The position numbers were made by a program, and so were the translations under genes. Shown here in pieces: positions 4,502 through 63,579 of a stretch of 64,000 nt of DNA. Positions within the stretch are counted from its first letter, which is position 1, and each line of letters begins with the position of its first letter. Location of the stretch: the NCBI RefSeq assembly GCF_030323025.1, contig NZ_CP097329.1, positions 4,140,001-4,204,000 of the forward strand, given 5' to 3'. Below the pieces are notes generated by a model. The model saw only the letters and a program-made list of their open reading frames with translations, was not told the DNA's origin and searched no databases. Source of the stretch: Pseudanabaena mucicola str. Chao 1806 (lineage in GTDB: Bacteria; Cyanobacteriota; Cyanobacteriia; Pseudanabaenales; Pseudanabaenaceae).

Positions 4502-4543
4502 AGAAATATTTTGGAAAGTCACGCCACTTTCCAAAATATTTCT
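4502..4543. terminator. 18-bp perfect hairpin downstream of the pseudouridine synthase gene
   Basis: Arms 4502-4519 and 4526-4543 are perfectly complementary around a six-base loop CACGCC. It is 137 bases after the stop codon of the pseudouridine synthase gene with no gene between, so it may end that transcript or belong to the dispersed hairpin family. Confidence 0.55.
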
Positions 4544-4785
4544 GAACTACTAAAAGCTTTAATGAGCTGTATGACTTAGCAATTGCAAATTAGCAATCAC
4601 TAATTTGAGATCGCTAACTTATGCACAAAAGATATTAAAATGAAGCAATTTAATTGCGGATATATAATCTCTGAAAGGATTCTGGAGTATATTGACACTA
4701 GATTAAGTGAGCATTAGCACTAAAATTATGACTTATATGTTCTTAATTTACTTTCAAAACTTTGCAAAATGTTATATTAGTTGAA

Positions 4786-4818
4786 TAAAGGTAATCTATC
4801 AAGCTTAGATTACCTTTA
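4786..4818. repeat. 13-bp perfect hairpin upstream of the RodZ-like gene
   Basis: Arms TAAAGGTAATCTA and TAGATTACCTTTA enclose a seven-base loop. It lies about 100 bases before the start of the RodZ-like gene and could be in its 5' leader or be a terminator for read-through from the left. Confidence 0.5.
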
Positions 4819-4915
4819 AAGGATAAATAAGACTCTATGTAGAACTTGTGGGTGTTAAAATTTGGATCTTAGCCAGATTTTACAAGCCAGTCAGTCCAAT
4901 CTCTTCGTATAAATT

Positions 4916-6019
4916 GTGGGTATTGTGAACATTACAACCTCGAAACAGGCAGAGAAGCTAGCAGAAATCGGAGCGCAATTCAAGCGTATTAGACAAGATA
5001 AAGAGCTATCCATCCCTCATCTCACTGCAACTACATTAATTTCTGAGCGCTATTTACGTGCTATTGAAAATGGGGAAATAGATTCTTTGCCTGAGCCTGT
5101 CTATGTGCGTGGTTTTATCCGTAAGTATGGTACAGCACTGGGGGTTGGTGATCTATCGGAGGATTTTCCTCTTAATCCAGTATTGCCTGAACAAAAATGG
5201 GCGGGTAGTGCTGCCGCAGAATTGCGCCCTCTGCATCTATATGCTCTCTACATTGGGGTAATTGCTGGCGCTGTAAGCCTCTTAGCAACTTTCCTGAATT
5301 CGCCAGATGCTAATAAAATAAATGACAGGCAGACTATTTTAGGTAATTCAGCCCAGATTGTTGAGCCGAAGGATAATACCCCAGTCGCCACAACAGATAG
5401 TCTATTACCTAAATTAGGTGGTTTAGAAGTTTTAAGACAGACAGCAATTAATCCTTCCGTAATGGCATTTAATATCAATAATTCTACTGTCAATGCTTCT
5501 ACGGTTGCTGCGTTACCAATAACTAATGCTAAGACGATGGCTAGTTCTCCAACGAATCAACTCCAGTCAGAAGCAACCTTTGGGGAAGTTAGTTCAAGTC
5601 TAAACAATGCTGTTAAATCTTGGACGAATAATATCAATTTTCCAAATGCGTTAAAAACTAATGTTGATATTGGGGCAAAAGGTAATTTCGAGTTTACAGG
5701 CAATAAGCCTGTCAATATCGGACTTATCATGAAGGGACAGTCTTGGTTACGCATTACCGTTGATGGCAAGACTGAGTTTGAGGGTGTGCTTGACGAAGGT
5801 AAAAAACTAACTTGGTCAGGCAATCGCCAAATTTCTATTCGTGCAGGTAATGCATCAGCAGTAAGACTGAGCTATAACAATCAGCCAATTAAGGTACTTG
5901 GTAAAGAGGGAGAAGTTGCTGAAAGATTGTTTGGTCTGAATCAGCTTAATTCAGTTGAAAATAACGAACCAGAGTTAGGAGGATTTTTAGGATCAATGTC
6001 TAACAGTGAAATTCCTTAG
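4916..6019 (+). CDS. RodZ-like helix-turn-helix membrane protein (DUF4115)
   Basis: 367 residues. An N-terminal Cro/CI-type HTH_25 domain (residues 15-80, with RYLRAIENGEI and PVYVRGFIRKYG) is typical of RodZ, the MreB-anchoring cell-shape protein. One membrane segment lies near residues 108-127. A Ser/Thr/Asn-rich linker leads to a C-terminal DUF4115 beta domain (about 250-335, including QSWLRITVDG). The topology would be a cytoplasmic HTH and an extracytoplasmic beta domain. Start codons are GTG at 4916 or GTG at 4925, neither with a convincing ribosome-binding site. No mre genes are nearby, so the link to cell shape comes from family membership only. Confidence 0.8.
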   Translation: MGIVNITTSKQAEKLAEIGAQFKRIRQDKELSIPHLTATTLISERYLRAIENGEIDSLPEPVYVRGFIRKYGTALGVGDLSEDFPLNPVLPEQKWAGSAAAELRPLHLYALYIGVIAGAVSLLATFLNSPDANKINDRQTILGNSAQIVEPKDNTPVATTDSLLPKLGGLEVLRQTAINPSVMAFNINNSTVNASTVAALPITNAKTMASSPTNQLQSEATFGEVSSSLNNAVKSWTNNINFPNALKTNVDIGAKGNFEFTGNKPVNIGLIMKGQSWLRITVDGKTEFEGVLDEGKKLTWSGNRQISIRAGNASAVRLSYNNQPIKVLGKEGEVAERLFGLNQLNSVENNEPELGGFLGSMSNSEIP

Positions 6020-6046
6020 AGATTTTTCTAGGCATCAAAAACTTTA

Positions 6047-6085
6047 TTAAAAAAGAGTTGGCACAAAGCGCCAACTCTTTTTTAA
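6047..6085. terminator. Bidirectional terminator between the rodZ-like gene and the DUF151 gene
   Basis: Arms of 16 bp (TTAAAAAAGAGTTGGC and its complement) flank ACAAAGC, with A and T runs on the outer sides of both arms. It serves two convergent genes and overlaps the stop codon of the minus-strand gene. On the minus strand a G-U pair extends the stem so that a UUU loop remains. Confidence 0.85.
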
Positions 6086-6579
6086 TTGCTCTCTAAACCA
6101 CTTTTTTTAACTAATTCTTCTGGTGTGAGTTTTGATAAAAACTCACGAAAAGCCCTTCTCTCCGCTTCGTCGGCATCTTGATCTACAGGAATTGAAGCTT
6201 CGAGAATGACCTCCTCCATTACCCAGATTGGACATTTAGCGCGTACTGCGATCGCGATCGCATCGCTTGGACGCGCATCAATCTCCTTTTTAATATCCCC
6301 TTGTGAAACTGTAATCACTGCATAGAAAGTACTATTCTTGAGCGCATGGACGACGACACGCTCCACAGTGATCCCCCAAGCATCTAGAAAATTAAGCATT
6401 AAATCATGAGTCATGGGACGTTCTAGAGGTCTGCCATCTAAAGCGCTGATGATTGCTTTGGCTTCAGCTTCACCGATCCAAATTGGTAAGGCTCGGCGTT
6501 CTAAGGTATCTCGTAGTAGGACGATAGGATTACGGCTGACTGCATCAATCGCTATTCCAGCCACCTTCATTTCGATCAT
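6082..6579 (-). CDS. Bifunctional nuclease family protein (DUF151)
   Basis: A 165-residue protein of the BFN/DUF151 family, whose plant members have RNase and DNase activity in vitro; the cyanobacterial role is not settled. The family core is clear: VSRNPIVLLRD, LPIWIGEAEA, RPMTHDL, DARPSDAIAIAVR. A C-terminal extension resembles a UvrB/C (UVR)-type motif (DEAERRAFREFL). The start chosen is the ATG at 6579, giving MIEMKVAGIAID, because it has GAGGAAGG just upstream; a longer reading frame to 6624 lacks such support. It converges on the RodZ-like gene and shares its terminator. Confidence 0.88.
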   Translation of the reverse strand: MIEMKVAGIAIDAVSRNPIVLLRDTLERRALPIWIGEAEAKAIISALDGRPLERPMTHDLMLNFLDAWGITVERVVVHALKNSTFYAVITVSQGDIKKEIDARPSDAIAIAVRAKCPIWVMEEVILEASIPVDQDADEAERRAFREFLSKLTPEELVKKSGLESN

Positions 6580-6772
6580 TATTGCCGCCTTCCTCAAGAA
6601 ATGAGTGAAAGTACCCCTCATCAATCAAAACTTTTGATGTGATATTGATAATTAAAGACGATCAATATCTAACTAGCAAGGGTTTTAGAAATTAAGAGGC
6701 TTTTGTTATTATATCACCGTCACGATAGGGAATCTGGCTTCCCGTCTTGTTTTTAAGGATACTATTCACAAT

Positions 6773-7711
6773 ATGCAATCAGACTTAAAAAATATTACGA
6801 TTATTGGCGCTGGTGCTTGGGGATTGGCGCTAGCAAGTCTGGTGAAAACAAATAATCATCATGTCAAGATCTGGTCTCGACAAAGTCCTCAACCCCTTTG
6901 CGAATTAGTTAAGGAAAGCGATGCGATTATTTCCGCAGTATCAATCAAAGGGGTGAGATCGATCGCTGAACAATTGCAGATTGCTCAAAAAAATGGGCAA
7001 TTACTACCTGATGCAGTGATCGTCAGTGCTACCAAGGGGATAGAAGCAAATACGAGACAAACACCATCGCAAATTTGGCGATCACTCCTGCCTATGCATC
7101 CCCTTGTGGTTTTATCGGGACCAAATCTATCTGCTGAAATTGTCGAAGGTAAACCTGCAGCAACAGTGGTAGCTAGTACCGACGAGTCGGCTGCACAATT
7201 TATTCAGACAATTTTTGCATCACGAAACTTTAGGGTCTATACCAACTCTGATCCCATTGGCGTTGAATTGGGCGGCACTTTAAAAAATGTCATTGCGATC
7301 GCTGTAGGTGCTTGTGATGGTCTCAATTTGGGAACAAATGCCAAATCAGCATTAATTACCCGATCGCTAATTGAGATTATTCGGGTTGGCGTTTACTTTG
7401 GGGCACAGCCCGAGACCTTTTGGGGCTTATCTGGATTGGGGGATTTGCTTGCAACCTGCAATAGCAATCTCAGTCGCAATTATCAAATTGGCTATGCGAT
7501 TGCACAGGGTAAAAGCCTAGAAGATGCGATCGCTAATGTGCATGGCACGGCTGAGGGAGTCAATACCGCCCATGTTTTAATGGAAATCAGTGTTCGCGAG
7601 AAAATTAGCGTCCCCGTATCAAGGTATGTATATCGATTGCTGAAGGGTGAGATTACACTGCAACAGGCAGTCGAAGGGCTGATGGAGCGTGACCTCAAAC
7701 CAGAAAATTAG
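6773..7711 (+). CDS. gpsA: Glycerol-3-phosphate dehydrogenase [NAD(P)+] GpsA
   Basis: Reduces dihydroxyacetone phosphate to sn-glycerol 3-phosphate, the backbone for membrane glycerolipids. The 312-residue protein opens with the nucleotide-binding glycine motif G-x-G-x-x-G (Gly12, Gly14, Gly17), has SGPNLSAEI in the middle, and carries the C-terminal substrate domain with GGTLKNVIAIA and GLGDLLATC, both family signatures. It is slightly shorter than many bacterial GpsA proteins (330-340) but all motifs are in place. A strong hairpin follows immediately. It is transcribed alone, facing the ABC ATPase gene. Confidence 0.95.
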   Translation: MQSDLKNITIIGAGAWGLALASLVKTNNHHVKIWSRQSPQPLCELVKESDAIISAVSIKGVRSIAEQLQIAQKNGQLLPDAVIVSATKGIEANTRQTPSQIWRSLLPMHPLVVLSGPNLSAEIVEGKPAATVVASTDESAAQFIQTIFASRNFRVYTNSDPIGVELGGTLKNVIAIAVGACDGLNLGTNAKSALITRSLIEIIRVGVYFGAQPETFWGLSGLGDLLATCNSNLSRNYQIGYAIAQGKSLEDAIANVHGTAEGVNTAHVLMEISVREKISVPVSRYVYRLLKGEITLQQAVEGLMERDLKPEN

Positions 7712-7715
7712 CAGA

Positions 7716-7756
7716 TTTTGCTGATGGACGGCACAAAGTGCCGTCCATCAGCAAAA
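7716..7756. terminator. 19-bp perfect hairpin with AAA loop after gpsA
   Basis: The left arm TTTTGCTGATGGACGGCAC and its exact complement flank a three-base AAA loop, starting four bases after the gpsA stop. A second, degenerate sibling with a GAA apex follows at about 7780-7802. Together they separate gpsA from the convergent ABC ATPase gene. Confidence 0.8.
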
Positions 7757-7777
7757 ATTATGAACCCTCTAAAAATA

Positions 7778-7802
7778 ATTGGTGGCACGAAGTGTCGTCA
7801 AT
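7778..7802. repeat. Degenerate hairpin with GAA apex
   Basis: TTGGTGGCAC-GAA-GTGTCGTCAA is an imperfect inverted repeat 22 bases after the gpsA terminator. Apex and layout resemble it, but the stem has mismatches, partly of G-U type. It lies just before the 3' end of the minus-strand ABC ATPase gene and may terminate that transcript. Confidence 0.5.
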
Positions 7803-7816
7803 CATCAAAACCAAAA

Positions 7817-8581: not shown

Positions 8582-8608
8582 AAATTCGGCAAGCTAACAT
8601 TTGAGCAT

Positions 8609-8672
8609 ACTATAGCAATCCTTGGAGGTTTGTGGAAGCATCCAGATTCTGGATACTCTTTTACAAACTAAT
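8609..8672. repeat. MITE-like remnant with CTATAGCAATCCT end
   Basis: CTATAGCAATCCTTGGAGG is followed by TTTGTGGAAGC, a small stem (ATCCAG/CTGGAT) and TTTTACAAAC. This is the left end and core of the element seen complete at 40922-41013; the right end is not recognisable. It lies in the short spacer between the ABC ATPase start and the crtW stop. Confidence 0.55.
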
Positions 8673-8674
8673 CA

Positions 8675-9427: not shown

Positions 9428-9458
9428 TTCTCGAGAGGAAATTAGTGAATTACAAGAA

Positions 9459-9497
9459 ATCCTTAAAAAGTATTGTGTAACGATACTTTTTAAGGAT
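9459..9497. terminator. 15-bp hairpin between ocp and crtW
   Basis: ATCCTTAAAAAGTAT and its perfect complement flank a nine-base loop. It lies just after the ocp stop on the minus strand and may partly terminate ocp transcripts, giving less crtW than ocp message, or stabilise the ocp 3' end. Confidence 0.65.
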
Positions 9498-9530
9498 CTC
9501 TTAGTTAAAAGTGCAAAGCACTGTCAATAT

Positions 9531-11519: not shown

Positions 11520-14500
11520 ATGCCATCAGAATCATTAAAAAAACCATCGAAATATTTACGTCTCGATATTCCCATTAATGTCTCCCATCAAATTGTTCTG
11601 GAGGGATTGGAAGCTTGGTTTAATTTGGAACTAATCTCAGAAATAGATTTTCAATGGCGCAATAGTCATCGCTTAGGAAATCGGTTAATCCTTGTTGCAA
11701 TTCAGAATGAGTCAATTTTAGATGGGTTGAACATATGGCTAGAGATGGGTTTAATTAGGGATGATCAAGTTAGACTAATTGCAAAAACGCGCTTTGTGTC
11801 TGAGATTGCAGTAGAAAAGCCAAATTACGCGACTCCGAGTAAGCATGAACCTATTCCTAGCTCCAATCAACCTAGACCTACTACGAATTTATCAGGATCT
11901 CATTTAGCACGATCGCCCCAAGCACCTCCGAAACCAATTTCTCCTAAAGTCACTCAACCACCGAGTAAAGTCGCGCAAACCGTGCGATCGCTCATTTCCG
12001 AATTCAGCACGATGTGGTTGCTATTTTTAGGCGTATTCCTAGTTGTGGTGTCATCTGGAGTGCTAGCGGCGAGTCAATGGAATAATTTTGATGCACAGGG
12101 GCAATATTTATTGCTCTTTGTCTATACATTAGGATTTTTTGGTGTAAGTTTCTGGACTAGCAAAAATGAGCATTTACGCTTGACTACTCGTGCTTTGCAA
12201 TTAGTAACTTTGCTGCTAGTACCTGCAAACTTTTGGGCGATGGATGGCTTAAGAGTAGTTAATAATCCTGCGGGAGTGGGGCTGGGTCTGATTGCAGGTT
12301 GTTTACTCTCAGGGATTGCCATTTTCCTCTTACAAACATCTTTTCTATATCGTGAATCACAGGAAATTACCGCAGATTTACAAAAACGAAGACGAATAAG
12401 GCGACAGCTTAGCCAAATCTCGATCGCTACTATTCTGATTCTTGCTTGGCTACATTTGGGATGGATGAACTCTCCCTACTATCCACTCATTGCGGTTTAT
12501 TTGGGGATTGGCGCGATCGCGATTTCTACTTTTCTCAATCGCGATCAGGGCTTAAATACTGCTGATAGTTCCACTTTCCCATTAGCCTTGATTACTGGCG
12601 CTTACAGCACAGTATTATTAGTTAGCCGAGCGCTTTTATTTGCCAATGTTTCTATCTTTAAGTTGGGATTAGCTTTGGGGATCTGTGGCTGGGTATTGGT
12701 ACAAATTACCAATAAAACGGAGCGATTGGCTTCGGCTTCGCTCAGCCATCAAGGGGATAAGAATTTGGCTGAAACTGGGGATTTGGCTAAACGCAGTCAA
12801 AGCCAGAAATCTTCTGAGAGTCAATCAGTTCTTTCCTTTCAGAAAGATTTAGGCAAGGTTTTACTCGGTTTAGGTTGGCTGGTATCAGTTTGGGATCAAT
12901 ATCCTTGGCAAGCTTTCACGGTGAGTTTATTGATTACATGGGTTCTCTGTGATCGCCTATTCAAACATGAAGAACCTAACGATCTCACTTATTTATTTTT
13001 CTGGGGCTTACAACTACTATGGCTTGGCAAAAGATTAACTCCCGAAGCGTGGTATGAACAGACTCTTAAATCTTTGCTGACATTATTTCAAACTAATTCC
13101 GAAATAAATTTACTGGGAGTTTCGCTATTTCCTTATGTAATTGTGTTTTTAGTAATTGCTGCAATTTATCACGATCGCCAAAAGCCTAGTTTAGCCCTGC
13201 GAGGTGAATTATTAGCCCTTGGATTTGGAGTGACGCTTACCTGTTTAAGCTTCTCGAATATTTACACTCTATTTACTAATTTAACTCTAGCGGCAATTAC
13301 TTTATTAGTTGTGCAAGCAAGGCGATCACCTCATAGCAGTGACTTGAACGGTCTGGTTTATTGTGCTCATATTGTCTGTTTGATTGCCATGAGTTTAGGT
13401 GTTTATTTACTCACCCGTACTCAATCCATCTTTGCTTGGAGTGGCTTTTTACTAGGAATCATGCTGGTGGAATGGATTGTGGTTTTAGTGATCGGCAAGT
13501 TTAAACTTCAAGCTGTCTCTCTTGGTGATGGGTCTAGCCCTCAGCCTCTCTCCCAACCCGAAAATCCTCATTTCCAAGCTTGGCGCGATAGTGCTTGGCA
13601 TATTGGTGCAAGTTTAGCAGCGTTGAGTTATATTTTGCTATGGAATGCCGTGATTGAAGGACAGAAGATTGGTGCTAGTAGCGAACTTCTATTTAGTAAT
13701 TATTGGGGGGTAGCTTGGTTATCCGTGCCGCTATCCCTTACATTTTTGGGGACTTGGCGCGAATTTGCAAATCGCGATTTGGCGATTAAACTCAGCATTG
13801 CAGGACTAGCGATCGCCCAATTCCTGACATGGGCAGATGATAGCTCTCGCTTGATTGGTTTAGGGGTTGCCTTTGCCCTAATGTTAGTAAATACGCGCCG
13901 TAGTAAATCCCTATTAATCACGTTTAATACCGTTGGCTATGGGTTAATCTTTATTGCCGCAATTTTATGGAAGTTTAAAGCTGGGGATGGTCAGATTGCT
14001 CAGTTTAGCTTTGGAATTACAGGTTTAATTGTTAGCGTTTTATTAATCTATGTTCTCAATCATTGGCTCAAATATCGCCGTGATCGCCATGTTCCTGATC
14101 TCAATTTGTCTTTAAATCAATCCTATGCCCAAGCCTTTGATATCTGGTCAGCATTAATATCAGCAGGCTTACTGATTCTACAATCTGTCTTAGCGATTAG
14201 TGTCTTTGCCTATAACCAAGATGACCAATTATTTGTCAATCTCTTACCCAGCACAATTTTAGTTACGATTGGCTTAATCTATCGTGTTTGGCAATCTAAC
14301 ACCTATCCTCCCTTCTGGACAGAGTGGGGCATTGCATGGAGCATTGAACTCATCACTTCAGGAGCGATTGCTGTTTTTAATGGTTCTGCAATTGAACTAG
14401 CGATCGCCAACTTAGCCCTAGGGTTCTTCACCCAATTATTAGGTGATTGGTGGATGCAGCATACGGGCGATGGTAAAAATAAGGGCGAATATCCAATTAG

Positions 14501-15902
14501 TTGGGATCTCGTTCCCTTGATTTATGGAGTAATGGGTTCATTATTTAGAATTGGGAACTTTAGCAGCTTAACAGGTTTATTTTCCCTAAGTACATCCCTC
14601 ATTGGGATTGGGATTGGACGCAGAGCATCCCAAGAAAATCCTCTATTTAAAGCGTTGACTTATCTATCGATGGCGATCGCTACTTTCTCAGCGTACGAGT
14701 TACTGTTCTATCAAATGGTATCAAGTTTTAAAGGAGGTAGCCTCGGTGATGGCTTAGTGGTTTTAGCGACACTTGCTTGTGCGATCGCCTATGCCTACCA
14801 AATTTTTAGTGATTGGATCATGCCGTATTTGCGACTTTCTAAGCAGGAAATTAGCATTTCGGCGCATTTACATTGGACTACAAGTGCTCTTTTTTTAATA
14901 TCCGCAAGTTTATATCAACCTTCCACTACTGGCGGTTTGATTGGTGGCGGTTTAGCGATTGCTTTGGCTACCTATGCGATTATGCAGGGAAGATCCTCCC
15001 TGACCTCCCTTGTAAAGGGAGGAAAAGAGGAAGTCTCCATTGATAAAGAAGATTTAGATGGAGAGGCTATTTGGATTTATACAGGTATTACTACTTCCAT
15101 CGGTGCGATCACCTATTTCATCTTCTTTGCTTTCCCCAATCCTTGGCTGATTGCGAATGTGATTAAACCCTATGCCGCAGCGATCGCTTGTCTGATTTCA
15201 CTCATGCTCTATTTACCGCCTTGGGAGGAATGGGAATGGAATGAGCAACCTTGGTATAATTCTGCCTTAGCCTTGCCATTAATTTTTGTTTTTATCTCTC
15301 AGTCTCAAATAGCAACATCCTGCTTAGTAATCGTAGGTATCTTTTACACAATCTATGCCAAGGTAAAAGAGCAAATTCGCTTTACCTATATAACCCTATT
15401 TCTATGGGATTGGGCAATTTTTGCATATTTACAACCAGTCGAGCTATTGACCAGTCTCAGATTTTTAATTAACATTTGCGTTTTCGGATTTTCTGGACTT
15501 TACTTTGCTCAAGTCGAACCTAATCTTCAGACTTTGTATAGAAGGGATTTGCGCCATACTATTCGCAGTTTAGCAAGTGGAGGGATGGGCTTAGTAGCTT
15601 TTCTCCATTCCTTTACAAATCCTAGTATTGCCTTTACAACATGGATTTTGAGTTTTGCCTTCATCATCGCAGGACTCGCTCTGCGTATCCGTGCTTATCT
15701 CTTTATGGGAACACTCACATTCATTTTGTTAGTCCTCACCCAAGCCGTAATTTTAGTCACGCAATATTCATTCCTGATGTGGACACTTGGTATCTTTGCA
15801 GGGATTGGCTTTATTCTGGTTGCCGCGAATTTTGAGGTCAGGCGCGATCGCATTTTGACATTGTTTAGAACTGTAGCGATCGAGCTAGAGTCATGGGAAT
15901 AA
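11520..15902 (+). CDS. Giant polytopic membrane protein (DUF2157-like N-terminus)
   Basis: A 1460-residue protein of unknown function. Residues 1-110 are soluble and carry two similar short motifs, LEGLEAWFNLELIS and LDGLNIWLEMGLIR, resembling the amphipathic helices at the start of DUF2157 proteins. A Pro/Ser-rich linker (about 105-155) follows, then dozens of hydrophobic segments to the end, many of 18-22 residues. A low-complexity hydrophilic stretch (about residues 400-440) interrupts the membrane part; at DNA level it includes a CTTCGGCTTCGCTCAGCC motif that recurs in spacers. Transcribed alone and ending at a strong terminator. No catalytic motif was seen; a transport or envelope role is only a guess. 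Confidence 0.8.
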   Translation: MPSESLKKPSKYLRLDIPINVSHQIVLEGLEAWFNLELISEIDFQWRNSHRLGNRLILVAIQNESILDGLNIWLEMGLIRDDQVRLIAKTRFVSEIAVEKPNYATPSKHEPIPSSNQPRPTTNLSGSHLARSPQAPPKPISPKVTQPPSKVAQTVRSLISEFSTMWLLFLGVFLVVVSSGVLAASQWNNFDAQGQYLLLFVYTLGFFGVSFWTSKNEHLRLTTRALQLVTLLLVPANFWAMDGLRVVNNPAGVGLGLIAGCLLSGIAIFLLQTSFLYRESQEITADLQKRRRIRRQLSQISIATILILAWLHLGWMNSPYYPLIAVYLGIGAIAISTFLNRDQGLNTADSSTFPLALITGAYSTVLLVSRALLFANVSIFKLGLALGICGWVLVQITNKTERLASASLSHQGDKNLAETGDLAKRSQSQKSSESQSVLSFQKDLGKVLLGLGWLVSVWDQYPWQAFTVSLLITWVLCDRLFKHEEPNDLTYLFFWGLQLLWLGKRLTPEAWYEQTLKSLLTLFQTNSEINLLGVSLFPYVIVFLVIAAIYHDRQKPSLALRGELLALGFGVTLTCLSFSNIYTLFTNLTLAAITLLVVQARRSPHSSDLNGLVYCAHIVCLIAMSLGVYLLTRTQSIFAWSGFLLGIMLVEWIVVLVIGKFKLQAVSLGDGSSPQPLSQPENPHFQAWRDSAWHIGASLAALSYILLWNAVIEGQKIGASSELLFSNYWGVAWLSVPLSLTFLGTWREFANRDLAIKLSIAGLAIAQFLTWADDSSRLIGLGVAFALMLVNTRRSKSLLITFNTVGYGLIFIAAILWKFKAGDGQIAQFSFGITGLIVSVLLIYVLNHWLKYRRDRHVPDLNLSLNQSYAQAFDIWSALISAGLLILQSVLAISVFAYNQDDQLFVNLLPSTILVTIGLIYRVWQSNTYPPFWTEWGIAWSIELITSGAIAVFNGSAIELAIANLALGFFTQLLGDWWMQHTGDGKNKGEYPISWDLVPLIYGVMGSLFRIGNFSSLTGLFSLSTSLIGIGIGRRASQENPLFKALTYLSMAIATFSAYELLFYQMVSSFKGGSLGDGLVVLATLACAIAYAYQIFSDWIMPYLRLSKQEISISAHLHWTTSALFLISASLYQPSTTGGLIGGGLAIALATYAIMQGRSSLTSLVKGGKEEVSIDKEDLDGEAIWIYTGITTSIGAITYFIFFAFPNPWLIANVIKPYAAAIACLISLMLYLPPWEEWEWNEQPWYNSALALPLIFVFISQSQIATSCLVIVGIFYTIYAKVKEQIRFTYITLFLWDWAIFAYLQPVELLTSLRFLINICVFGFSGLYFAQVEPNLQTLYRRDLRHTIRSLASGGMGLVAFLHSFTNPSIAFTTWILSFAFIIAGLALRIRAYLFMGTLTFILLVLTQAVILVTQYSFLMWTLGIFAGIGFILVAANFEVRRDRILTLFRTVAIELESWE

Positions 15903-15947
15903 AGCAAGATGAGAGGTGACGCGAATCGTCACCTCTCATCTTGCTTT
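15901..15947. terminator. Bidirectional 20-21-bp terminator hairpin
   Basis: Arms 15901-15920 and 15928-15947 are exact complements, with one more G-C pair inside leaving a CGAAT loop; a short T run follows the right arm. It serves the convergent giant membrane protein gene and the Get3d-like gene and overlaps both stop codons. Confidence 0.88.
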
Positions 15948-17784: not shown

Positions 17785-18549
17785 ATGCCAGTGACGATCG
17801 CCCAATTGCAAAAATGGAAACAGCAAAAAAAGCCCATTGCCGCACTAACGGCAAGTGACTATGCGATCGCCAAATTACTCGATAAAGCAGGTGTGGATAT
17901 GCTTTTGGTGGGTGACTCCCTCGCAATGGTTGCTTTAGGGCATAAAACAACATTACCCGTTACCCTTGATGCAATGATTCACCATGCCCAAGCGGTCAGT
18001 CGGGGTGTCGAGAATGCGTTACTCATCGTTGATATGCCCTTCCTGAGTTATCAGGTGAGCGCGGAAGAGGCTCTGCGTTCAGCAGGACGCATTTTTAAGG
18101 AGACTGATGCAAAGGGTCTCAAGCTGGAGGGTGGGTATCCTGATATGGTGGCGACAATTCGCAAATTAGTACAGGCGGGAATGCCTGTGATGGGGCACGT
18201 GGGACTAACGCCACAATCGGTGCATCGGATTGGTTATCGAGTTCAAGGTGGTACTCCCGACACCGCCGAAGAGATTTTGCATCAAGCCAAAGCTTTAGTC
18301 GAGGCAGGTATTTTTGCCCTGTTATTAGAAAATATTCCTGCGAAATTAGCCGCTAAGATTACAAATTTAATTCCCGTGCCGACGATTGGCATTGGAGCAG
18401 GTAAGGAATGTGATGGGCAGATCTTAGTAACCCACGATGTGCTGGGTCTATCCGATTGGCATCCCCCCTTTGCTAAGAAATATATAAATTTACAAGAGAC
18501 GATTACTGAAGCAGTTAAGCAATATTGCCAAGATGTTAGAAATCAATAA
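17785..18549 (+). CDS. panB: Ketopantoate hydroxymethyltransferase PanB
   Basis: Transfers a hydroxymethyl group from methylene-tetrahydrofolate to 2-oxoisovalerate, the first step toward pantothenate and coenzyme A. The 254-residue TIM-barrel protein shows [47 protein letters not shown] and GIGAG, which include the metal- and substrate-binding residues. The ATG at 17785 is preferred over one at 17704 because GAGG precedes it and the family begins with MPVTIAQLQ-like sequence. It ends at a GC-rich hairpin facing the CupB-type gene. Confidence 0.94.
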
Positions 18550-18575
18550 ATAGGCGGCGCATTGCGCCGCCTATT
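18549..18575. terminator. 12-bp GC-rich hairpin after panB
   Basis: AATAGGCGGCGC and its complement flank an ATT loop right at the panB stop. The T-rich sequence following it fits a rho-independent terminator for panB. Confidence 0.75.
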
Positions 18576-21668: not shown

Positions 21669-21734
21669 TTAGGCTTGAGGTAGATGTGGTGCGGGCTTTG
21701 CCCGCACCACATCTACCCAATGCGTAAGTCCTAA
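21669..21734. repeat. Hairpin element with TTAGG/CCTAA ends
   Basis: A compact 66-base element. The ends are TTAGG and CCTAA, and an 18-bp perfect stem GGTAGATGTGGTGCGGGC (21679-21717) encloses a TTT loop. The right flank CCAATGCGTAAGTCCTAA is the inverse of the end at 11308. Transposase-like coding begins immediately after the element, so it marks a junction. Confidence 0.65.
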
Positions 21735-22173: not shown

Positions 22174-22399
22174 CCAGACCGATCTAAAAGTTATTTAAAA
22201 CAACTGTCCTAACCCGAATTAGCACAAACAAGAATATTGACACAAAAGTGACTCTTGCCGCATTCCATCTTAGATGTTGCTGCAACTTTTCGCGAAATAT
22301 GTTAATCTCTTGCATAGGGGTTTTATTTGTGATGTGGTTATCTTTATGAAACCCCTTCCTCCCTTTGCAATTTTTTGTCCTGTACTAAGTCCACAAACA

Positions 22400-28200: not shown

Positions 28201-28255
28201 CACAAAAGAATTACGGGAAGTATTGCTTTGCAATACTTCCCGTAATTCTTTTGTG
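28201..28255. terminator. 26-bp perfect hairpin with TTT loop after the Spy-like gene
   Basis: The arm CACAAAAGAATTACGGGAAG continues to 28226; the complement runs 28230-28255 and the loop is TTT. It lies 38 bases after the stop codon of the Spy-like gene and is the likely terminator, though the stem is far longer than termination needs. Confidence 0.75.
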
Positions 28256-28425: not shown

Positions 28426-28482
28426 CCTAAATGTTTTTTGGAAGCGCACTCCGAAGGAGTGCGCTTCCAAAAAACATTTAGG
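28426..28482. repeat. 27-bp perfect hairpin with GAA loop
   Basis: The arm starts CCTAAATGTTTTTTGGAAGC and ends with CTCC before a GAA loop; the other arm is an exact complement. The CCTAAAT ends and the following ATTACATACAG resemble the element ends at 4384-4479. No gene is near enough for simple termination. Confidence 0.8.
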
Positions 28483-28596: not shown

Positions 28597-28635
28597 GGTA
28601 AGAATGGGCGGCGCGAAGCGCCGCCCATTCTTACC
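28597..28635. repeat. 18-bp perfect hairpin with GAA loop
   Basis: GGTAAGAATGGGCGGCGC and its complement enclose GAA, giving the apex GCGCGAAGCGC. It is the third long hairpin within 440 bases and unrelated in stem sequence to the other two. Confidence 0.8.
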
Positions 28636-28836: not shown

Positions 28837-28988
28837 TTAGGACTTACACAATATCCCTGTAATGAATTATGGGCTGAAAGCTTAAACCCTCTATAAAGGT
28901 TTGATTACAGACGTTCTTGAGTCCGCTTTAGCTGACTTTAGCTTTGAGCCAAGAACGTTAGTTCTTAGTTATTTTGCATAAGACCTAG
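28837..28988. repeat. MITE-like element with TTAGGACTTAC ends
   Basis: It begins TTAGGACTTACACAATAT and ends with an imperfect inverse (TTTTGCATAAGACCTAG). Internally, GTCCGCTTTAGCTGAC and AGAACGTTAGTTCT form small dyads. It belongs to the same end type as the elements at 11308 and 21669. Non-coding. Confidence 0.5.
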
Positions 28989-30016: not shown

Positions 30017-30061
30017 AAAAGCAGAAAACAAACTTGCATTGCTGGTTTGTTTTCTGCTTTT
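30017..30061. terminator. Bidirectional 17-bp terminator between abrB and recF
   Basis: AAAAGCAGAAAACAAAC and its perfect complement flank an 11-base loop, with A/T runs outside. It lies ten bases past the abrB stop and overlaps the recF stop region. Confidence 0.85.
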
Positions 30062-42133: not shown

Positions 42134-42186
42134 CCAAGAGATTTTTTGAAAGTGCTGCAAAGCAGCACTTTCAAAAAATCTCTTGG
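42134..42186. repeat. 25-bp perfect hairpin with AAA loop between the divergent cobD and hisD genes
   Basis: The arm CCAAGAGATTTTTTGAAAGT continues with GCTGC; the exact complement follows an AAA loop. It sits between two divergent genes, so it cannot be a terminator for either and instead overlaps their promoter region. Flanking AAATCC and GGATTT suggest a short mobile element. Confidence 0.8.
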
Positions 42187-46524: not shown

Positions 46525-46579
46525 AAAACCGAGAGTTTTGTTCCGCCCGCTACGCGGGCGGAACAAAACTCTCGGTTTT
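46525..46579. repeat. 26-bp perfect hairpin element, copy A of an inverted pair
   Basis: The arm core CCGAGAGTTTTGTTCCGCCC continues to GC before a TAC loop; four more A-T pairs extend it outward. The downstream flank TTTAATTAAGTTGAGCTACT is the inverse of the flank of copy B at 49658-49704. The two copies bracket the lipoprotein and transglycosylase genes. Confidence 0.8.
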
Positions 46580-49630: not shown

Positions 49631-49657
49631 AAGTAGCTCAACTTAATTAAAACCCAA

Positions 49658-49704
49658 CCCAGAATTTTGTTCCGCCTGCTACGCGGGCGGAACAAAATTC
49701 TGGG
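49658..49704. repeat. 22-bp hairpin element, copy B of the inverted pair
   Basis: CCCAGAATTTTGTTCCGCCT followed by GC, a TAC loop and the near-complement (one G-T type pair). The apex matches copy A at 46525-46579, while the outer stem differs at two positions, both compensated on the other arm. The left flank CTAAGTAGCTCAACTTAATT is the inverse of the right flank of copy A. Confidence 0.8.
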
Positions 49705-49751
49705 TTTTTAGTTTACTCATGTCAAACTACTTATTATTGAATTCAATGATG

Positions 49752-51436: not shown

Positions 51437-51483
51437 GGTAGAAAACGGTAAAAATTGCTTCGCAATTTTTACCGTTTTCTACC
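51437..51483 (-). terminator. 22-bp perfect hairpin with TTC loop after the MATE-like gene
   Basis: The arm GGTAGAAAACGGTAAAAATT plus GC and its exact complement enclose TTC (GAA on the minus strand). It lies 30 bases after the stop of the MATE-like gene and may end the sbnA-MATE transcript before the ligase gene. Confidence 0.7.
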
Positions 51484-56249: not shown

Positions 56250-56253
56250 GATG

Positions 56254-57149: not shown

Positions 57150-57328
57150 TGATTTGAGCGAAGCCTAGCCTAGATTTGGCTGCGCTTCCCTCAAATCTCC
57201 TTAAGCTATAGTGACTTTTTTCTGCCAATGCCAAGATAATTAGGTAGTGCTAAGTAGGTAAATATAGGCGGTGCAAAGCTATGCACTTTTCTATCACAAT
57301 AAGCCCTTTCCTTTTTAGGACTACCGAA

Positions 57329-57700: not shown

Positions 57701-57856
57701 AACGCTCTCGGCTTGAAGGCAAAAGTAAAAAGTAAAAAGGTAAAAGTAAAAAATTAGAAAGGTACTCGTTTGTGAAGCAATACATTATTATGATTATTAA
57801 ATAATTGCTAGTATAACTGGTTAGGAAAGATTCTGTCACATTAAAAATAATTCCCC

Positions 57857-60800: not shown

Positions 60801-60868
60801 AAGCTTTTAATACACTAATCGAAGTGTCTAAAAATGGCGACGGATCAAGCGTGCAGTTAATTGGATAG
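57857..60868 (+). CDS. sbcC: Exonuclease subunit SbcC (Rad50 homologue)
   Basis: A 1003-residue SMC-like ATPase that with SbcD opens and trims DNA hairpins and protein-blocked ends. Walker A GANGAGKSS (about 33-41) is at the N-terminus. Long coiled coils run about 180-480 and 515-840, and the zinc hook CPLC lies at 498-501. The C-terminal head has the signature YSGGEAFRINFAVRLALSR and Walker B IIDEGFGSQD. The sbcD gene is not adjacent. The substrate class (DNA hairpins) is notable because this genome region is full of long perfect inverted repeats. Confidence 0.95.
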   Translation: MIPQKLRLKNFLSYQQLALDFSGLHVACICGANGAGKSSLLEAISWAVWGASRAASEDDVIHVGTKETQVDFTFIASGEVYRVIRTRSRNSSTSLEFQVQSEGKFKSLTERKVRSTQQSIISHLKMDYETFVNSAYLRQGRADEFMLKRPSDRKQILADMLALSQYDDLAERAKDIARNSKAESAVLENLLAHLQEQILAGAEIAPQLETLRSQLLDLQTWENRDRAKLQAVEDLQKQYTSVFQQLIWQQQQQTSLSGNLTQIERQLASQQKQLQQLEVYLRERSLILQDYERYQLLSNQEAELERKFQKYQQLSERRGDFSHKLASLRSELKGQLRHYQAQLESLVQQETDLQGVLSRATEIEAAITELHKARAVLQEFDRLHAQSTPLVHRYQTLKHQLEREETKLTAKLEELVAKRDQLQLQVKDRDRLLNHAQELDRQIDALQKKQVYQQRVHEKGLERRDFLERLKTRLADTETAFNKLEAKMRQLTVPNAPCPLCDRPLDEAHWQLVQKKHKQESRDLQADIWVVKEQQAASNCEIEVLREEYRLLKKELAPLNDLIQRKGTLQERLKAISESVQRLEIINAEIQDLSDRLQTKNYLREAWEEMELIDHNIHKFAYDEKNHALARGDIERWRWAEIKQSELKNAQRQADNLSQKIPDLQLKINQLDERLQKNLIDLEVQHELEQCDRALTQLGYDPDFHQQLRTQKQELTLSLLRYQELIRAEEEYPELQQQVSHLQQSQTKQQQELQIITNQITELQSQIQSLQGDHGREIQVLKQNLQNWRSRMDSLLALIGSLQQAQQQLEQSRKREQETIAQIETACQRQRIHTELYQAFGKNGIQALMLENILPQIEVEANQILAQLSDRQLNVRFITQKSGKKSDRLIETLDIEIADTKGTRPYETYSGGEAFRINFAVRLALSRVLAQRKGSTLQTLIIDEGFGSQDQLGCDRLVSAINAIAHDFECILVITHMPLMKEAFNTLIEVSKNGDGSSVQLIG

Positions 60869-60942
60869 ATATGAGGCGGTGTGAAGCAAAGAAGGCATTT
60901 GCTCACCCACCTAACCACAAATGTCCAACCGTCTCATCCTCT

Positions 60943-61254
60943 CTAAGCTAAAAGTTGCCGAAGTAAGTCTGCGGGAATATCCTCGGTTAAATTTAAAAAG
61001 ATGGCACTGCCATATTCACTGTCGTAAGTGGTCATTGGTCTTGCTGTCAAATCTTGACGTACTTACTTCTGTAGGAATGTATCTCTTTGGGCGGCTGTCT
61101 CAAAACTACTGATCCGTTCGTGACATAACGGCATTGCCCAACTCCCTGTCATCTCTGGTATCCATGCCAAAGTACTGTGGTCAAGCCCTAGCACGATCGG
61201 TTTGTTGCCTTCAACCAAATTCGGTTGATGCACGAAACTCCTATCTTTTAGCAT
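60943..61254 (-). pseudogene. Transposase relic with an in-frame stop
   Basis: Reading leftward from 61254, DRSFVHQPNLVEGNKPIVLGLD and STLAWIPEMTGSWAMPLCHERISSFE resemble the central DDE region of a putative cyanobacterial transposase family. A TAA at 61063-61065 interrupts; the same frame continues as RPMTTYDSEYGSAIFLNLT, with the Asp of DSEYG as a candidate second catalytic residue, and ends at TAG 60943-60945. The N-terminus and last third are missing. Confidence 0.75.
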
Positions 61255-61401
61255 TTTGGTATGGTGTCTTCCCCATCCTGTATGGGCTCCTGCTAGTAAG
61301 GGGCGAAGGCTGTAGATGTCTCTTTACTTTTCATCTACTTTAGGCAGTTTGTATATCTTTTTCTCTGCCTTTCTTTCCTTTTATTGTCCTAGCAAATTTC
61401 A

Positions 61402-61424
61402 GTGGTGCGGCTTAAGCACACCAC
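61402..61424 (-). terminator. Hairpin after the 61436-61816 membrane protein gene
   Basis: GTGGTGCG and CACACCAC pair with one mismatch around GCTTAAG, 12 bases past the minus-strand stop codon. A moderate candidate terminator. Confidence 0.45.
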
Positions 61425-61435
61425 CGAAACTTAAA

Positions 61436-61816
61436 TTAACCTTCCAAGGAATCAAGATCTAATGCGGCTGAACCACCCCGTTCAAGCTCAACTAGCATTT
61501 GTCCAAGTTGCCGCCACACGAGCAGTGCAATGCCGAGAGTGATTGGGATAGCAACTATATAACCAAATATAGCTGGAAACCCAAATACTTCTAGTCCCGT
61601 TGACATAAATACAGTAATACTGATCACCATACCGAAGTAAGGGACTTTAATACTGGAGCTTTTGAGTTCTAATATTGTGCGCGAGGATTTCTGAGTTGAC
61701 CAAATATTGACTAAATTACGGAGGGTCACTTCAAAAGCACGTCCACAGGCTAGTCCCGCCAGTAGAGAGATTGCGAATAATAAATAAGGAGGATCAGAGG
61801 GGAAGTAGTAGTTCAC
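61436..61816 (-). CDS. Small membrane protein of unknown function
   Basis: 126 residues starting at GTG. Hydrophobic segments lie at about 10-27 and in a broad stretch 58-103 that could cross the membrane twice; the loop between carries basic residues (STQKSSRTILELKSSS). The acidic C-terminus (ALDLDSLEG) is probably cytoplasmic. I recognise no family. It is 34 bases downstream of the trpE/pabB-like gene on the same strand and likely co-transcribed. Confidence 0.68.
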   Translation of the reverse strand: MNYYFPSDPPYLLFAISLLAGLACGRAFEVTLRNLVNIWSTQKSSRTILELKSSSIKVPYFGMVISITVFMSTGLEVFGFPAIFGYIVAIPITLGIALLVWRQLGQMLVELERGGSAALDLDSLEG

Positions 61817-61850
61817 GGTTATATCAATCTTTGAGTATATTTTTATCTTA

Positions 61851-63215
61851 CTAGTCTGAGCGCATTAGTCCGAGTGCAGCTAACTGTGCTTGAGCTTTTT
61901 GTAAAGACTCATGCCATTCGCGATCGCTAATACTGTCAGCGACGATACCTGCACCAACCTGACCCCAAATATGATCGTTAGTCTTTAGCAAAGTCCGAAT
62001 CAAGATATTAAGATCTATATTGCCACGTTTGTCGATATAGCCACAGGAACCATAAAACAAGCTACGTCGTTGGGGTTCAAGCTTCTCGATGATTTCCATA
62101 CAACGCACCTTGGGGCAGCCTGTAATCGTTCCCCCTGGGAAAGTGGCGCGAATCAGATCCACGAAATTGTGATCGCCGCGTAATGTCCCCACCACGTTAC
62201 TCACAAGATGCATCACATGACTATAGCGCTCAATCACTAATAATTCATCAACTTTAACACTTCCCCATTCACAAACCTTACCTAGATCATTGCGCTCTAA
62301 GTCAACGAGCATAATATGTTCAGCCTGTTCCTTGATGCAGGCAAGTAATTCACGCTCAAGCTCTCGATCAAGCTGTTCAGTGTTGCCTCGTGGTCTTGTG
62401 CCTGCGATCGGACGAGTTTCAGCATGGCGATCGCGCAAACTCACAAGACGCTCTGGGGAAACGCTAATCACTTCGCCCCAAGTAGTACGCCAATAGCTAG
62501 CAAAAGGCGAGGGATTGATTTTTTGTAAATGGCGGTATAGTTGCCATCCATCCGATGCCCAAGGATAGCCATATCGTATGGAGAGATTTGCCTGAAAAAT
62601 ATCACCCGCATAGATATGCTGCTTGGCAGTTTCCACGATGGATTCATAGCCTTGTTTTTCTGGAGAATAGGTTGGTTGAGCTTGACTATGATCTTTACTG
62701 AAATAGGCAAGGGGCTTAAGCCCCTTGTTTTCTAAATTGTTAAGGCGATCGCTTAATTCGTCTAGTTCATGGTGATCGCTAGCGGCTAGCCAGACGGTTT
62801 GAGTCTGATGATCGATGACCGCAAAGCTAGATGGTTCATACCAAAAGGCAACTGGGAATGGCAAGTTGTCAGACTTGCTATAGAACAAGCGCTCAATTTC
62901 CCATGCGAGATCATAGCCTAGCCATCCTAAATACCCTCCCGTAAAGGGTAGGTGCTTAGGTAAATTGTTAAAGTTTGGAGCAGATTGCATTCGCGATCGC
63001 AGTTTCTCTAAACAGGTTAAAATCTCCCCAACTTCTGGAGTCCATATTTGGCGAGGCTTACCCCCGACAATCGAGTATCGAGCTAATTTTGAGGGAACTG
63101 TGGTAGGGCTTTCCAATAGAACCGTAATCGGTTCCCAAAAATAGAGTGCTTCCCAGAGATCGGCTCCTGTCATTTCATGGGGCAGTGATCGCTGAAGCCA
63201 CAACCAATCGGGCAT
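61851..63215 (-). CDS. Chorismate-binding synthase, component I (TrpE/PabB family)
   Basis: 454 residues. Makes anthranilate or aminodeoxychorismate from chorismate with an amidotransferase partner. The C-terminal catalytic domain shows RPIAGTRPRG, the ELLACIKEQAEHIMLVDLERNDLG region, and FPGGTITGCPKVRCMEIIE, and ends with FYGSCGYID and NILIRTL. The PIAGT motif has Ala where E. coli PabB has its active-site Lys (PIKGT), as in TrpE; however, the length and weak N-domain fit PabB-like enzymes of cyanobacteria. The ATG at 63215 is preferred to a TTG further up. A palindromic repeat lies within the frame (62708-62727), encoding NKGLKPLA. Confidence 0.82.
   Translation of the reverse strand: MPDWLWLQRSLPHEMTGADLWEALYFWEPITVLLESPTTVPSKLARYSIVGGKPRQIWTPEVGEILTCLEKLRSRMQSAPNFNNLPKHLPFTGGYLGWLGYDLAWEIERLFYSKSDNLPFPVAFWYEPSSFAVIDHQTQTVWLAASDHHELDELSDRLNNLENKGLKPLAYFSKDHSQAQPTYSPEKQGYESIVETAKQHIYAGDIFQANLSIRYGYPWASDGWQLYRHLQKINPSPFASYWRTTWGEVISVSPERLVSLRDRHAETRPIAGTRPRGNTEQLDRELERELLACIKEQAEHIMLVDLERNDLGKVCEWGSVKVDELLVIERYSHVMHLVSNVVGTLRGDHNFVDLIRATFPGGTITGCPKVRCMEIIEKLEPQRRSLFYGSCGYIDKRGNIDLNILIRTLLKTNDHIWGQVGAGIVADSISDREWHESLQKAQAQLAALGLMRSD
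62708..62727. repeat. 20-bp palindrome inside the trpE/pabB-like gene
   Basis: CAAGGGGCTTAAGCCCCTTG is identical to the core of the palindrome between nrtA and nrtB (422-445). Here it lies in frame, in a region (about residue 170) between N-terminal and catalytic domains where an insertion of a few residues would be tolerated. Confidence 0.85.
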
Positions 63216-63349
63216 AGAGAGGATTCGTAAGGTACGATTTTCATTAAACCGTAATTTGGTGATGCAAAATGCTTCCAAAATTGCAGTTTCCTAATTGCAG
63301 TGGCATACTGAAAAACGATATCTCCCTAAAGTAGGAACCATCCAAATCT

Positions 63350-63538
63350 ATGAATCGCACCTTATTTATTGGGATTCTCATCGTCATTGGATTAATGGTA
63401 TTGGCAAGTTCGTTACCTAATCAGTTCTATGGTGCAAGCGATCGCAAATTCATCATTATCACGATCATCACCTGCATTATTTCAGCGATCGGGCTTGCCA
63501 TTTTCTTTGCTGCACCATTCCTTTCAACACAAGGCTAA
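63350..63538 (+). CDS. Small two-helix membrane protein
   Basis: 62 residues with two hydrophobic helices (about 5-20 and 35-56) joined by a short polar loop (PNQFYGASDRKF). No recognised family. A small photosynthesis-related or envelope protein is possible but unproven. It diverges from the trpE/pabB-like gene and ends at a strong bidirectional hairpin. Confidence 0.65.
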   Translation: MNRTLFIGILIVIGLMVLASSLPNQFYGASDRKFIIITIITCIISAIGLAIFFAAPFLSTQG

Positions 63539-63579
63539 GTATTGAACTGTGGCGCGAAGCACCACAGTTCAATACTTAG
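63535..63579. terminator. Bidirectional 18-bp terminator hairpin with GAA tip
   Basis: CTAAGTATTGAACTGTGG and its complement are perfect. Inside, after one C-A mismatch (G-U on the minus strand), GC/GC closes a GAA loop. It overlaps the stop regions of both convergent genes, the small membrane protein and the rhodanese. Confidence 0.85.

What the first reader, a model, noticed from the sequence alone, without database searches (positions are those of the whole stretch)
4502..63579. Dispersed population of long perfect hairpins with three-base GAA/AAA/TTC/TTT caps
At least a dozen intergenic inverted repeats share a layout but not a sequence: stems of 15-27 bp, often perfect, capped by GAA, AAA, TTC or TTT. 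Examples are 7716-7756, 21679-21717, 28201-28255, 28426-28482, 28597-28635, 42134-42186, 51437-51483 and 63535-63579. Small DNA hairpins of the form GCGAAGC are known to be unusually stable, which may explain selection for this cap. Many serve as terminators, but the stems are much longer than needed, and several lie between divergent genes or far from any gene. Independent stems with one common cap suggest a process that creates or repairs hairpins (for example template switching at stalled forks) or selection at the structural level, not simple copying.
Basis: partly seen in the sequence, partly recalled or inferred. Interest (0 to 1): 0.72.

Follow-up and report, generated by a model that had tools for sequence, protein, structure and literature searches.

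The report
Hairpin tips that flip between strains
A cyanobacterium carries hundreds of long, nearly perfect DNA hairpins whose short tips often point the opposite way in a near-identical strain, evidence that DNA copying repeatedly jumps strands at such hairpins.

Summary
The window is from a Pseudanabaena-like cyanobacterium. The hairpins are far above chance: 186 in 464 kb against 2-6 in shuffles. The cap bias is real too. Of 108 3-nt-loop hairpins without close relatives, 99 close with C-G and 56 carry GAA/TTC or AAA/TTT (short-stem controls: 14 and 9 of 58). It persists under stricter clustering. Of 311 long hairpins, 127 lie in multi-copy clusters by a loose criterion.

The decisive result came from a near-identical strain (G038; 462 kb aligned, 0.82% divergent). 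Among 392 orthologous hairpins chosen for flanks >=96% identical, 60 have the loop reverse-complemented, 55 of these with no other change. Flips occur in 57 of 142 hairpins with inner stems >=14 bp and 3 of 250 shorter ones, reach about 50% from 18 bp and fall with spacer length. In the window itself 2 of 22 mapped hairpins are flipped. Some arms differ by compensated pairs or extensions, several together with flips.

Best explanation: inter-strand template switching between hairpin arms, a known process (yeast; similar plastid inversions), here genome-wide and very frequent. How the hairpins are born is not shown.

The parts
4502..4543 (.). hairpin, 18-bp perfect stem, 6-nt loop
   Evidence: lies in a diverged patch against G038 (flank 82% identical)
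7716..7756 (.). hairpin after a glycerol-3-phosphate dehydrogenase gene; 19-bp stem, cap AAA; one G-C pair is A-T on both arms in G038
9454..9502 (.). hairpin, 23-bp stem; G038 orthologue has 4 paired changes and a different loop, but flank only 80% identical
15901..15947 (.). hairpin between convergent genes (1460-aa ORF and ArsA-type ATPase), 21-bp stem; loop CGAAT is ATTCG in G038: FLIP
18549..18575 (.). hairpin after a ketopantoate hydroxymethyltransferase gene, 12-bp stem, cap ATT, same in G038; AAT with two compensated pairs in G021 and G002
21679..21717 (.). family-B hairpin (GGTAGATGTGGTGCGGGC), 18-bp stem, cap TTT, same in G038
28201..28255 (.). hairpin, 26-bp perfect stem; cap TTT is AAA in G038 with 100-base flanks identical: FLIP
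28426..28482 (.). hairpin, 27-bp stem, cap GAA; same in G038; similar sequences in G005 and G012
28597..28635 (.). hairpin, 18-bp stem, cap GAA, same in G038; inside an ~80-bp element matched in at least 14 genomes of the genus
30017..30061 (.). terminator-like hairpin after the AbrB-like gene, same in G038; same site in relatives with caps ATT/AAT, AAA/TTT, TAA/TTA and changed stems
42134..42186. hairpin between divergent genes (aminotransferase and hisD), 25-bp perfect stem, cap AAA; G002 orthologue imperfect with cap TTA, G038 orthologue degraded; not seen in the other 18 hisD loci
46525..46579 (.). family-C hairpin (TTTTGTTCCGCCCGC core), 26-bp stem, cap TAC, same in G038
49656..49706 (.). 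family-C hairpin, 24-bp stem with one wobble, cap TAC, same in G038
51437..51483 (.). hairpin, 22-bp stem, cap TTC; outside the blocks aligned to G038
63533..63581 (.). hairpin, 23-bp stem with one mismatch, cap GAA; outside the aligned blocks

Best explanation
These are long inverted repeats with tiny spacers: terminator-like hairpins without close relatives plus several multi-copy palindrome families. They are under continuous inter-strand template switching. A nascent strand that has copied one arm can pair equally well with the matching arm on the opposite strand. It jumps there, copies the cap in the opposite orientation, and returns in the second arm, so the cap is inverted in place. Longer or asymmetric jumps copy one arm onto the other, which mends mismatches, makes paired (compensated) changes and extends stems. 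Shown: in-place loop inversion, its dependence on arm and spacer length, and cases combined with arm differences. Inferred: that replication template switching, not cruciform processing, is the agent, and that stable GC-NNN-GC mini-hairpins explain the cap bias, as seeds or as stabilised single-stranded folds.
For: Against G038 (462,186 aligned bases, 3813 substitutions), 60 of 392 hairpins with flanks >=96% identical have the exact reverse complement of the loop, 55 with no other change; 5 in stems >=14 have other loop substitutions. Flips by inner stem in G000: <8 bp 1/156; 8-9 0/50; 10-11 2/25; 12-13 0/19; 14-15 6/26; 16-17 10/28; 18-19 18/37; >=20 23/51. By spacer, arms >=14 bp, one row per site, self-complementary and length-changed rows set aside: <=3 nt 46/103; 4-8 12/38; 9-20 2/28; longer 0/17. 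Hairpins without close relatives flip as well: 29/75, against 19/36 in families of 5 or more (inner stem >=16); with no shared 10-mer 19/49, no shared 9-mer 12/30. An inverted tract that carries an arm mismatch to the other side: 2861891. Flip together with arm extension or correction: 2851298, 1581753 and others. Three paired stem changes, 0.10 expected. Within G000 alone, family-A caps relative to an asymmetric flank are mixed: 11 GAA and 12 TTC among 30 loci. AbrB-site hairpins L111 and L112 differ only in AAA/TTT; L113/L114 in TAA/TTA plus one compensated pair. In yeast, spacer inversions were seen only with arms >9 bp (PMC8604942, passages).
Against: No reads, mutants or replication data. 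G038 is a metagenome assembly, so some flips could be assembly errors. Compensated pairs alone would also fit RNA selection, and only 3 were found. G038 family-A caps are skewed (20 TTC, 6 GAA among 30 loci), not 50:50. Among more distant Pseudanabaena-type loci at hisD, 8 orthologous hairpins gave no exact flip: 2 same, 6 otherwise changed, one of these TTT to AAA with a neighbouring change. Direction of change is unknown at almost all sites. No clean hairpin birth was found between the strains. No test separates template switching from cruciform-based routes.
Confidence: 0.72

Rival explanations
1. Assembly artefact: short-read assemblers cannot orient the loop of a perfect hairpin, so orientation is random in one or both genomes.
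For: Orientation is close to random for stems >=18 bp; G038 is a MAG; no reads available.
Against: Eight flips occur at inner stems of 10, 11, 14 and 15 bp, shorter than usual assembly k-mers (k values recalled). Frequency rises gradually with stem length. Some flips come with arm differences. Other genomes differ in cap orientation at the AbrB site. G038 shows a skew, not 50:50.
Confidence: 0.1
2. Cruciform extrusion: the palindromes extrude in supercoiled DNA and are cut (SbcCD or a junction resolvase) and rejoined with the loop reversed, or flip by recombination between the arms as proposed for plastids.
For: Long perfect arms and short spacers also favour cruciforms. SbcD is present, and a second homologue over the cut-off occurs in 21 of 22 genomes of the genus searched but in none of 14 others of the class. 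Plastid authors invoke recombination (PMC12928735, passages).
Against: Stem ends next to 3-nt loops are G+C-rich (94% and 89% at the first two pairs), which slows extrusion (recalled). Resolution of a cruciform gives hairpin-capped breaks, not a simple inversion (reasoning). Combined one-sided arm extension suggests DNA synthesis.
Confidence: 0.15
3. Copying of mobile palindrome families (MITE or REP-like), with orientation differences from insertion both ways or from gene conversion between copies.
For: 127 of 311 long hairpins lie in multi-copy clusters, more by stricter criteria. Family A has about 92 copies in G000 and no match with up to 2 mismatches in G002, G021, G022.
Against: Flips are at orthologous sites with matching flanks, and hairpins without relatives flip too (29/75, 19/49 or 12/30 by criterion). 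The only indel >=20 bp inside aligned blocks carries no hairpin. The one REP-type transposase gene found has no hairpin of score >=9 in its 3.3-kb locus.
Confidence: 0.05
4. RNA-level selection: they are simply intrinsic terminators kept perfect by selection, and loops drift.
For: 295 of 311 lie mostly outside ORFs >=120 aa that cover 76% of the DNA. A hairpin follows the AbrB-like gene in 15 of 22 loci scanned. Fewer one-sided stem changes than expected at the mean rate: 24 against 73.5.
Against: Drift would hardly make 60 exact reverse complements against 5-6 other loop changes. Only 41 of 311 have a clear T- or A-run by a crude test. Some lie between divergent genes (42134).
Confidence: 0.05

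Closest known systems
Spacer inversion and arm homogenisation by template switching between short inverted repeats in yeast (PMC8604942, passages read)
   Same: Exact reverse complement of the spacer, arms >9 bp, short spacers, occasional simultaneous arm correction, reversible
   Different: Ten spacer inversions in coding genes there; here 60 in 462 kb of one bacterial strain pair, near 50% for stems >=18 bp, with one cap type prevailing
Small (5-50 bp) hairpin inversions of plant plastid genomes, bounded by 11-24 bp inverted repeats (described in PMC12928735, passages; original papers recalled)
   Same: Flip-flop of the loop of a stem-loop, similar arm lengths
   Different: Bacterial chromosome, mostly 3-7 nt loops, hundreds of candidate sites; that paper ascribes them to recombination; common descent of the process is only a suggestion
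Template-switch mutations that create and maintain RNA hairpins (PMC8794818, passages)
   Same: Loop inversions and compensated changes explained by one event; stable loops proposed to promote switching
   Different: Loop inversions were rare in rRNA genes; here they are the commonest change in long hairpins
Quasipalindrome mutation hotspots of E. coli (PMC7202029, search listing only)
   Same: Imperfect inverted repeats mutated by a template switch in a bacterium
   Different: Laboratory system there; here natural variation across a genome
REP elements and their tyrosine transposases (PMC3733652, PMC3116915, search listing only)
   Same: Many-copy short intergenic palindromes
   Different: No linkage of palindromes to a transposase gene was found, and many hairpins here have no close relative

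Membership tests
Inverted-repeat template-switch mutations | Spacer replaced by its exact reverse complement with flanks unchanged | tested here: met
   60 of 392 orthologous hairpins, 55 with no other change
Inverted-repeat template-switch mutations | Dependence on arm length and short spacer | tested here: met
   57/142 against 3/250 at the 14-bp limit; spacer series
Inverted-repeat template-switch mutations | Arm homogenisation or extension in one event | tested here: met
   Multi-base arm differences together with loop flips, a handful of cases, direction unknown
Inverted-repeat template-switch mutations | Replication dependence and effect of fork or exonuclease mutants | not testable with these tools
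   No experiments
Plastid-type small inversions | Stem-loop with 11-24 bp arms, loop in both orientations among relatives | tested here: met
Plastid-type small inversions | Located in a plastid genome | tested here: not met
   4.53-Mb bacterial contig
REP/RAYT elements | Palindromes flank a REP-associated tyrosine transposase gene | tested here: not met
   One REP-transposase-like gene (75 bits, cut-off 80), no hairpin of score >=9 in its locus
Intrinsic terminators | Hairpin at the gene end followed by a T-run | tested here: inconclusive
   Mostly outside ORFs 295/311; T- or A-run 41/311 by a crude test; no transcript ends
MITEs | Target-site duplication at an empty site | tested here: inconclusive
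   No clean empty-site hairpin insertion between G000 and G038 in aligned blocks or the gaps shown

The most novel reading that the evidence does not exclude
Pseudanabaena runs an unusually active hairpin-making and hairpin-flipping process. New hairpins are born when a nascent 3' end folds on a GC-NNN-GC mini-hairpin (GCGAAGC being the most stable) and primes copying of its own arm. The cap is thus the seed, which explains why unrelated stems share one cap, and inter-strand switching then flips and mends them. The same process may underlie the small inversions of plastids, descendants of cyanobacteria.
Probability: 0.2. Interest if true: 0.85.

Novelty: new variant of a known kind. Interest (0 to 1): 0.64.

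Why it matters
It is a natural, genome-wide record of template switching in a bacterium. Orientation of a few bases reports the events, and hundreds of sites could give rate against arm length, spacer and cap. If arms are kept matched by a mutational route, compensated pairs are weaker proof of RNA selection than usually assumed. A 2026 survey found excess variants in the spacers, but not the arms, of bacterial inverted repeats (PMC13155455, passages); loop inversion is a ready and testable cause. It also makes a shared origin of plastid small inversions testable in their bacterial relatives.

Tried and rejected
REP/RAYT origin: one weak transposase-like gene, no hairpin of score >=9 in its locus; Y1 transposase matches occur in 20 of 22 genomes of the genus and 8 of 14 others, so they do not mark the hairpin-rich genus. 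Loss of the hairpin nuclease SbcCD as the reason for tolerance: SbcD is present, with an extra homologue. Known RNA families: none in the window at gathering score. Replication-strand bias of caps: G+C skew along the sampled stretches is too irregular to place fork direction. Energy ranking of caps with DNA parameters: all triloops scored alike, uninformative. E. coli as a flip control: 150 kb of K-12 had one hairpin with inner stem >=14 bp, so it cannot test flipping. Other loci in hand: 46 non-cyanobacterial loci gave 6 orthologous hairpins and no flip; 15 other cyanobacterial loci gave 0; 19 hisD loci of Pseudanabaena type gave 8 and no exact flip; 19 loci of the AbrB search gave 3, of which 2 flipped. 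Clean empty sites: none in aligned blocks or the gaps shown.

Dropped rows: 18 of 410 mapped hairpins with flanks <96% identical, hairpins within 100 bases of an alignment-block end, and alignment blocks under 800 bases or 94% identity. Six rows with a length change (including 4106080, 1573710 and 1581753, whose caps look inverted by eye) were not scored as flips. The first spacer series (<=3 nt 56/129, 4-8 13/39, 9-20 4/32, longer 0/17) had no flank filter and could count a site more than once; it is replaced. 'Without close relatives' rests on 896 kb, about 20% of the genome, and on the clustering rule: 184, 112 or 70 of 311.
Full report
Source. The window lies at 4140001-4204000 of a single 4.53-Mb contig. 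Its hisD protein is matched at 93-100% by 14 records labelled Pseudanabaena, and GCGATCGC occurs 83 times in the window (its meaning as a cyanobacterial motif recalled, also stated in the abstract of PMC4390886 listed). So this is a Pseudanabaena-like cyanobacterium.

All eight example hairpins are present, seven of them perfect. In 464 kb of the same genome there are 186 hairpins of score >=11, against 6, 2 and 4 in dinucleotide shuffles. In 896 kb there are 311 of score >=14. With the rule that half of the 9-mers of an arm are shared they form 204 clusters, 184 of them single; the largest have 22, 22, 15, 15, 10 and 9 members. If any shared 10-mer or 9-mer joins two hairpins, 112 or 70 stay single. 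295 of 311 lie mostly outside ORFs >=120 aa, although these ORFs cover 76% of the DNA.

The cap is real but is better described as GC-NNN-GC. Among single hairpins with 3-nt loops the closing pair is C-G in 99 of 108, against 14 of 58 short chance-like stems; GAA/TTC plus AAA/TTT make 56 of 108, against 9 of 58. Stricter sets give 57 and 31 of 62, and 34 and 21 of 38; controls outside ORFs are only 20, with 7 and 3. 146 of 192 hairpins with 3-nt loops and inner stems >=12 bp, families included, have the form GC-NNN-GC. Against GC-NNN-GC heptamers that are not in hairpins, GAA is enriched 6.5-fold, GTA 4.2, TAA 2.5, AAT 1.9 and AAA 1.7, while AAG, CAA, ATA, ATG and ATC are absent (63 hairpins, 2297 background heptamers). 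GAA and GTA are GNA triloops, recalled as unusually stable in DNA. The density is high: 275 hairpins per Mb with inner stems >=14 bp, against 1 in 150 kb of E. coli K-12, 1 in 231 kb of 15 other cyanobacterial loci and 30 in 671 kb of 46 loci of other bacteria (these loci surround one gene). Of 14 hisD loci labelled Pseudanabaena, 13 have 58 to 1047 per Mb and one has none.

The key result. One relative, G038 (genome of locus L022, Pseudanabaena sp. M53BS1SP1A06MG, a MAG), is collinear with the window and with five other regions chosen by their family-A copies. Over 462,186 aligned bases there are 3813 substitutions, 0.82%. I compared hairpins of score >=8 whose 100-base flanks are >=96% identical: 392 of 410 mapped. 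At 60 of them the loop in G038 is the reverse complement of the loop in G000, in 55 with no other change; in 31 of the 60 the flanks are identical. In the window 2 of 22 mapped hairpins are flipped: 28201-28255 (TTT to AAA) and 15901-15947 (CGAAT to ATTCG). Flips depend on inner perfect stem length: <8 bp 1/156; 8-9 0/50; 10-11 2/25; 12-13 0/19; 14-15 6/26; 16-17 10/28; 18-19 18/37; >=20 23/51. The contrast at 14 bp is 57/142 against 3/250 (P 1.5e-25). They also depend on spacer: <=3 nt 46/103, 4-8 nt 12/38, 9-20 nt 2/28, longer 0/17. Other loop substitutions number 5 in stems >=14. Flipped and unflipped hairpins have the same mean flank identity (0.9951 and 0.9945). Hairpins without relatives flip (29 of 75; 19 of 49 and 12 of 30 under stricter rules) as do large families (19 of 36), all for inner stems >=16.

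Further support. Family A (GTAATTGTGTTGCGGGCGC) gives 94 matches, about 92 sites, in G000 and none in G002, G021 or G022. Relative to its asymmetric TAA flank, caps in 30 G000 loci are 11 GAA, 12 TTC, 3 TTT, 2 AAA and 2 TAA, so orientation is mixed within one single-contig genome; 30 G038 loci are skewed (20 TTC, 6 GAA, 2 AAA, 1 TAA, 1 TTA). Of 21 orthologous family-A pairs matched by flanks, 11 are flipped; some of these sites are also in the 392. The hairpin after the AbrB-like gene was found in 15 of 22 loci scanned. L111 and L112 have identical stems and AAA against TTT; L113 and L114 have TAA against TTA; L107 has AAT where the window, L124 (G038), L132, L119 and L120 have ATT. If caps change class rarely, at least three inversions are needed there. 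Against this, 8 orthologous hairpins among hisD loci gave no exact flip.

Arms. In stems >=14 bp (4455 pairs, 238 hairpins) there are 24 one-sided changes (73.5 expected at the mean rate) and 3 paired changes (0.10 expected by chance), including 7716-7756. Larger differences combine with flips. At 2851298 G000 has a perfect 28-bp stem where G038 has an unmatched outer arm and the opposite cap; another family-B site shows the reverse; at 1581753 G000 has an imperfect arm and G038 a perfect one with the opposite cap. At 2861891 the inverted tract took an arm mismatch with it to the other side. The direction of these changes is not known, but they are what copying from the opposite strand between the arms would leave.

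Could it be an artefact? G038 is a metagenome assembly and no reads were available. An assembler that cannot orient a loop needs stems at least as long as its k-mer. Eight flips at 10-15 bp stems, the gradual rise with length, the flips with arm differences and the orientation differences among other genomes argue against this, but only reads will settle it.

Mechanism. I favour inter-strand template switching: shown are the inversion, its arm and spacer dependence and the combined arm differences; inferred is the replication step. Published yeast data show spacer inversions only with arms >9 bp and explain them in the same way (PMC8604942, passages). Plastid work cites 5-50 bp inversions bounded by 11-24 bp inverted repeats and ascribes them to recombination (PMC12928735, passages). 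For rRNA genes loop inversions were found but were rare (PMC8794818, passages). Cruciform processing or arm recombination is the main rival. A second SbcD homologue, in 21 of 22 genomes of the genus and over the cut-off in none of 14 others of the class, is a lead; the three neighbouring proteins tested are not SbcC.

Cap origin. A polymerase that extends a 3' end paired with itself by two bases is known (human Pol theta, PMC11292364, passages). Snap-back priming on GC-NNN-GC would give unrelated stems one cap. No birth event was seen between the two strains, so this stays a hypothesis.

Novelty. The kind of event is known. In the searches (open-access library; listings, and passages of five papers) I saw no report of genome-wide loop inversion in a free-living cyanobacterium or of such frequency in any bacterium. 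I rate it a new variant of a known kind.

Noticed in passing
window 28837-28987: A ~150-base dispersed repeat with five or more further copies at 82-91% identity in the same genome and others at about 72-90% in many genomes of the genus (capped list).
   Followed up: no
window 22203-22389: A ~190-base repeat with 21 matches listed in G021 (81-82% identical to the window, nearly all with equal scores), two in G038 and one in G002.
   Followed up: no
L248:4630-5796 (G000 264035-264796): A second SbcD-type nuclease gene found in 21 of 22 genomes of the genus searched, with no second match over the cut-off in 14 other genomes of the class.
   Followed up: partly
G000 near 1554975 and G038 contig C57: Where G000 has a 20-bp hairpin with cap TAC, G038 has a sequence that looks like a tRNA-Leu gene, so the strains differ by a replacement (tRNA identity by eye).
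   Followed up: no
L005:6435-6525, L017:5376-5466, L012:17116-17206: Two short palindrome families (GTTTTCATTTTGCC and GTTTTCAAATGAGT) recur as a pair about 30 bases apart, like one composite element.
   Followed up: no
window 11520-15902: A 1460-aa ORF with no Pfam match at E 0.001.
   Followed up: no
window 42063 and G038:C35 14153-14493: G038 has about 330 extra bases near the start of the aminotransferase gene, and the neighbouring intergenic stretch looks more diverged than the genes.
   Followed up: no
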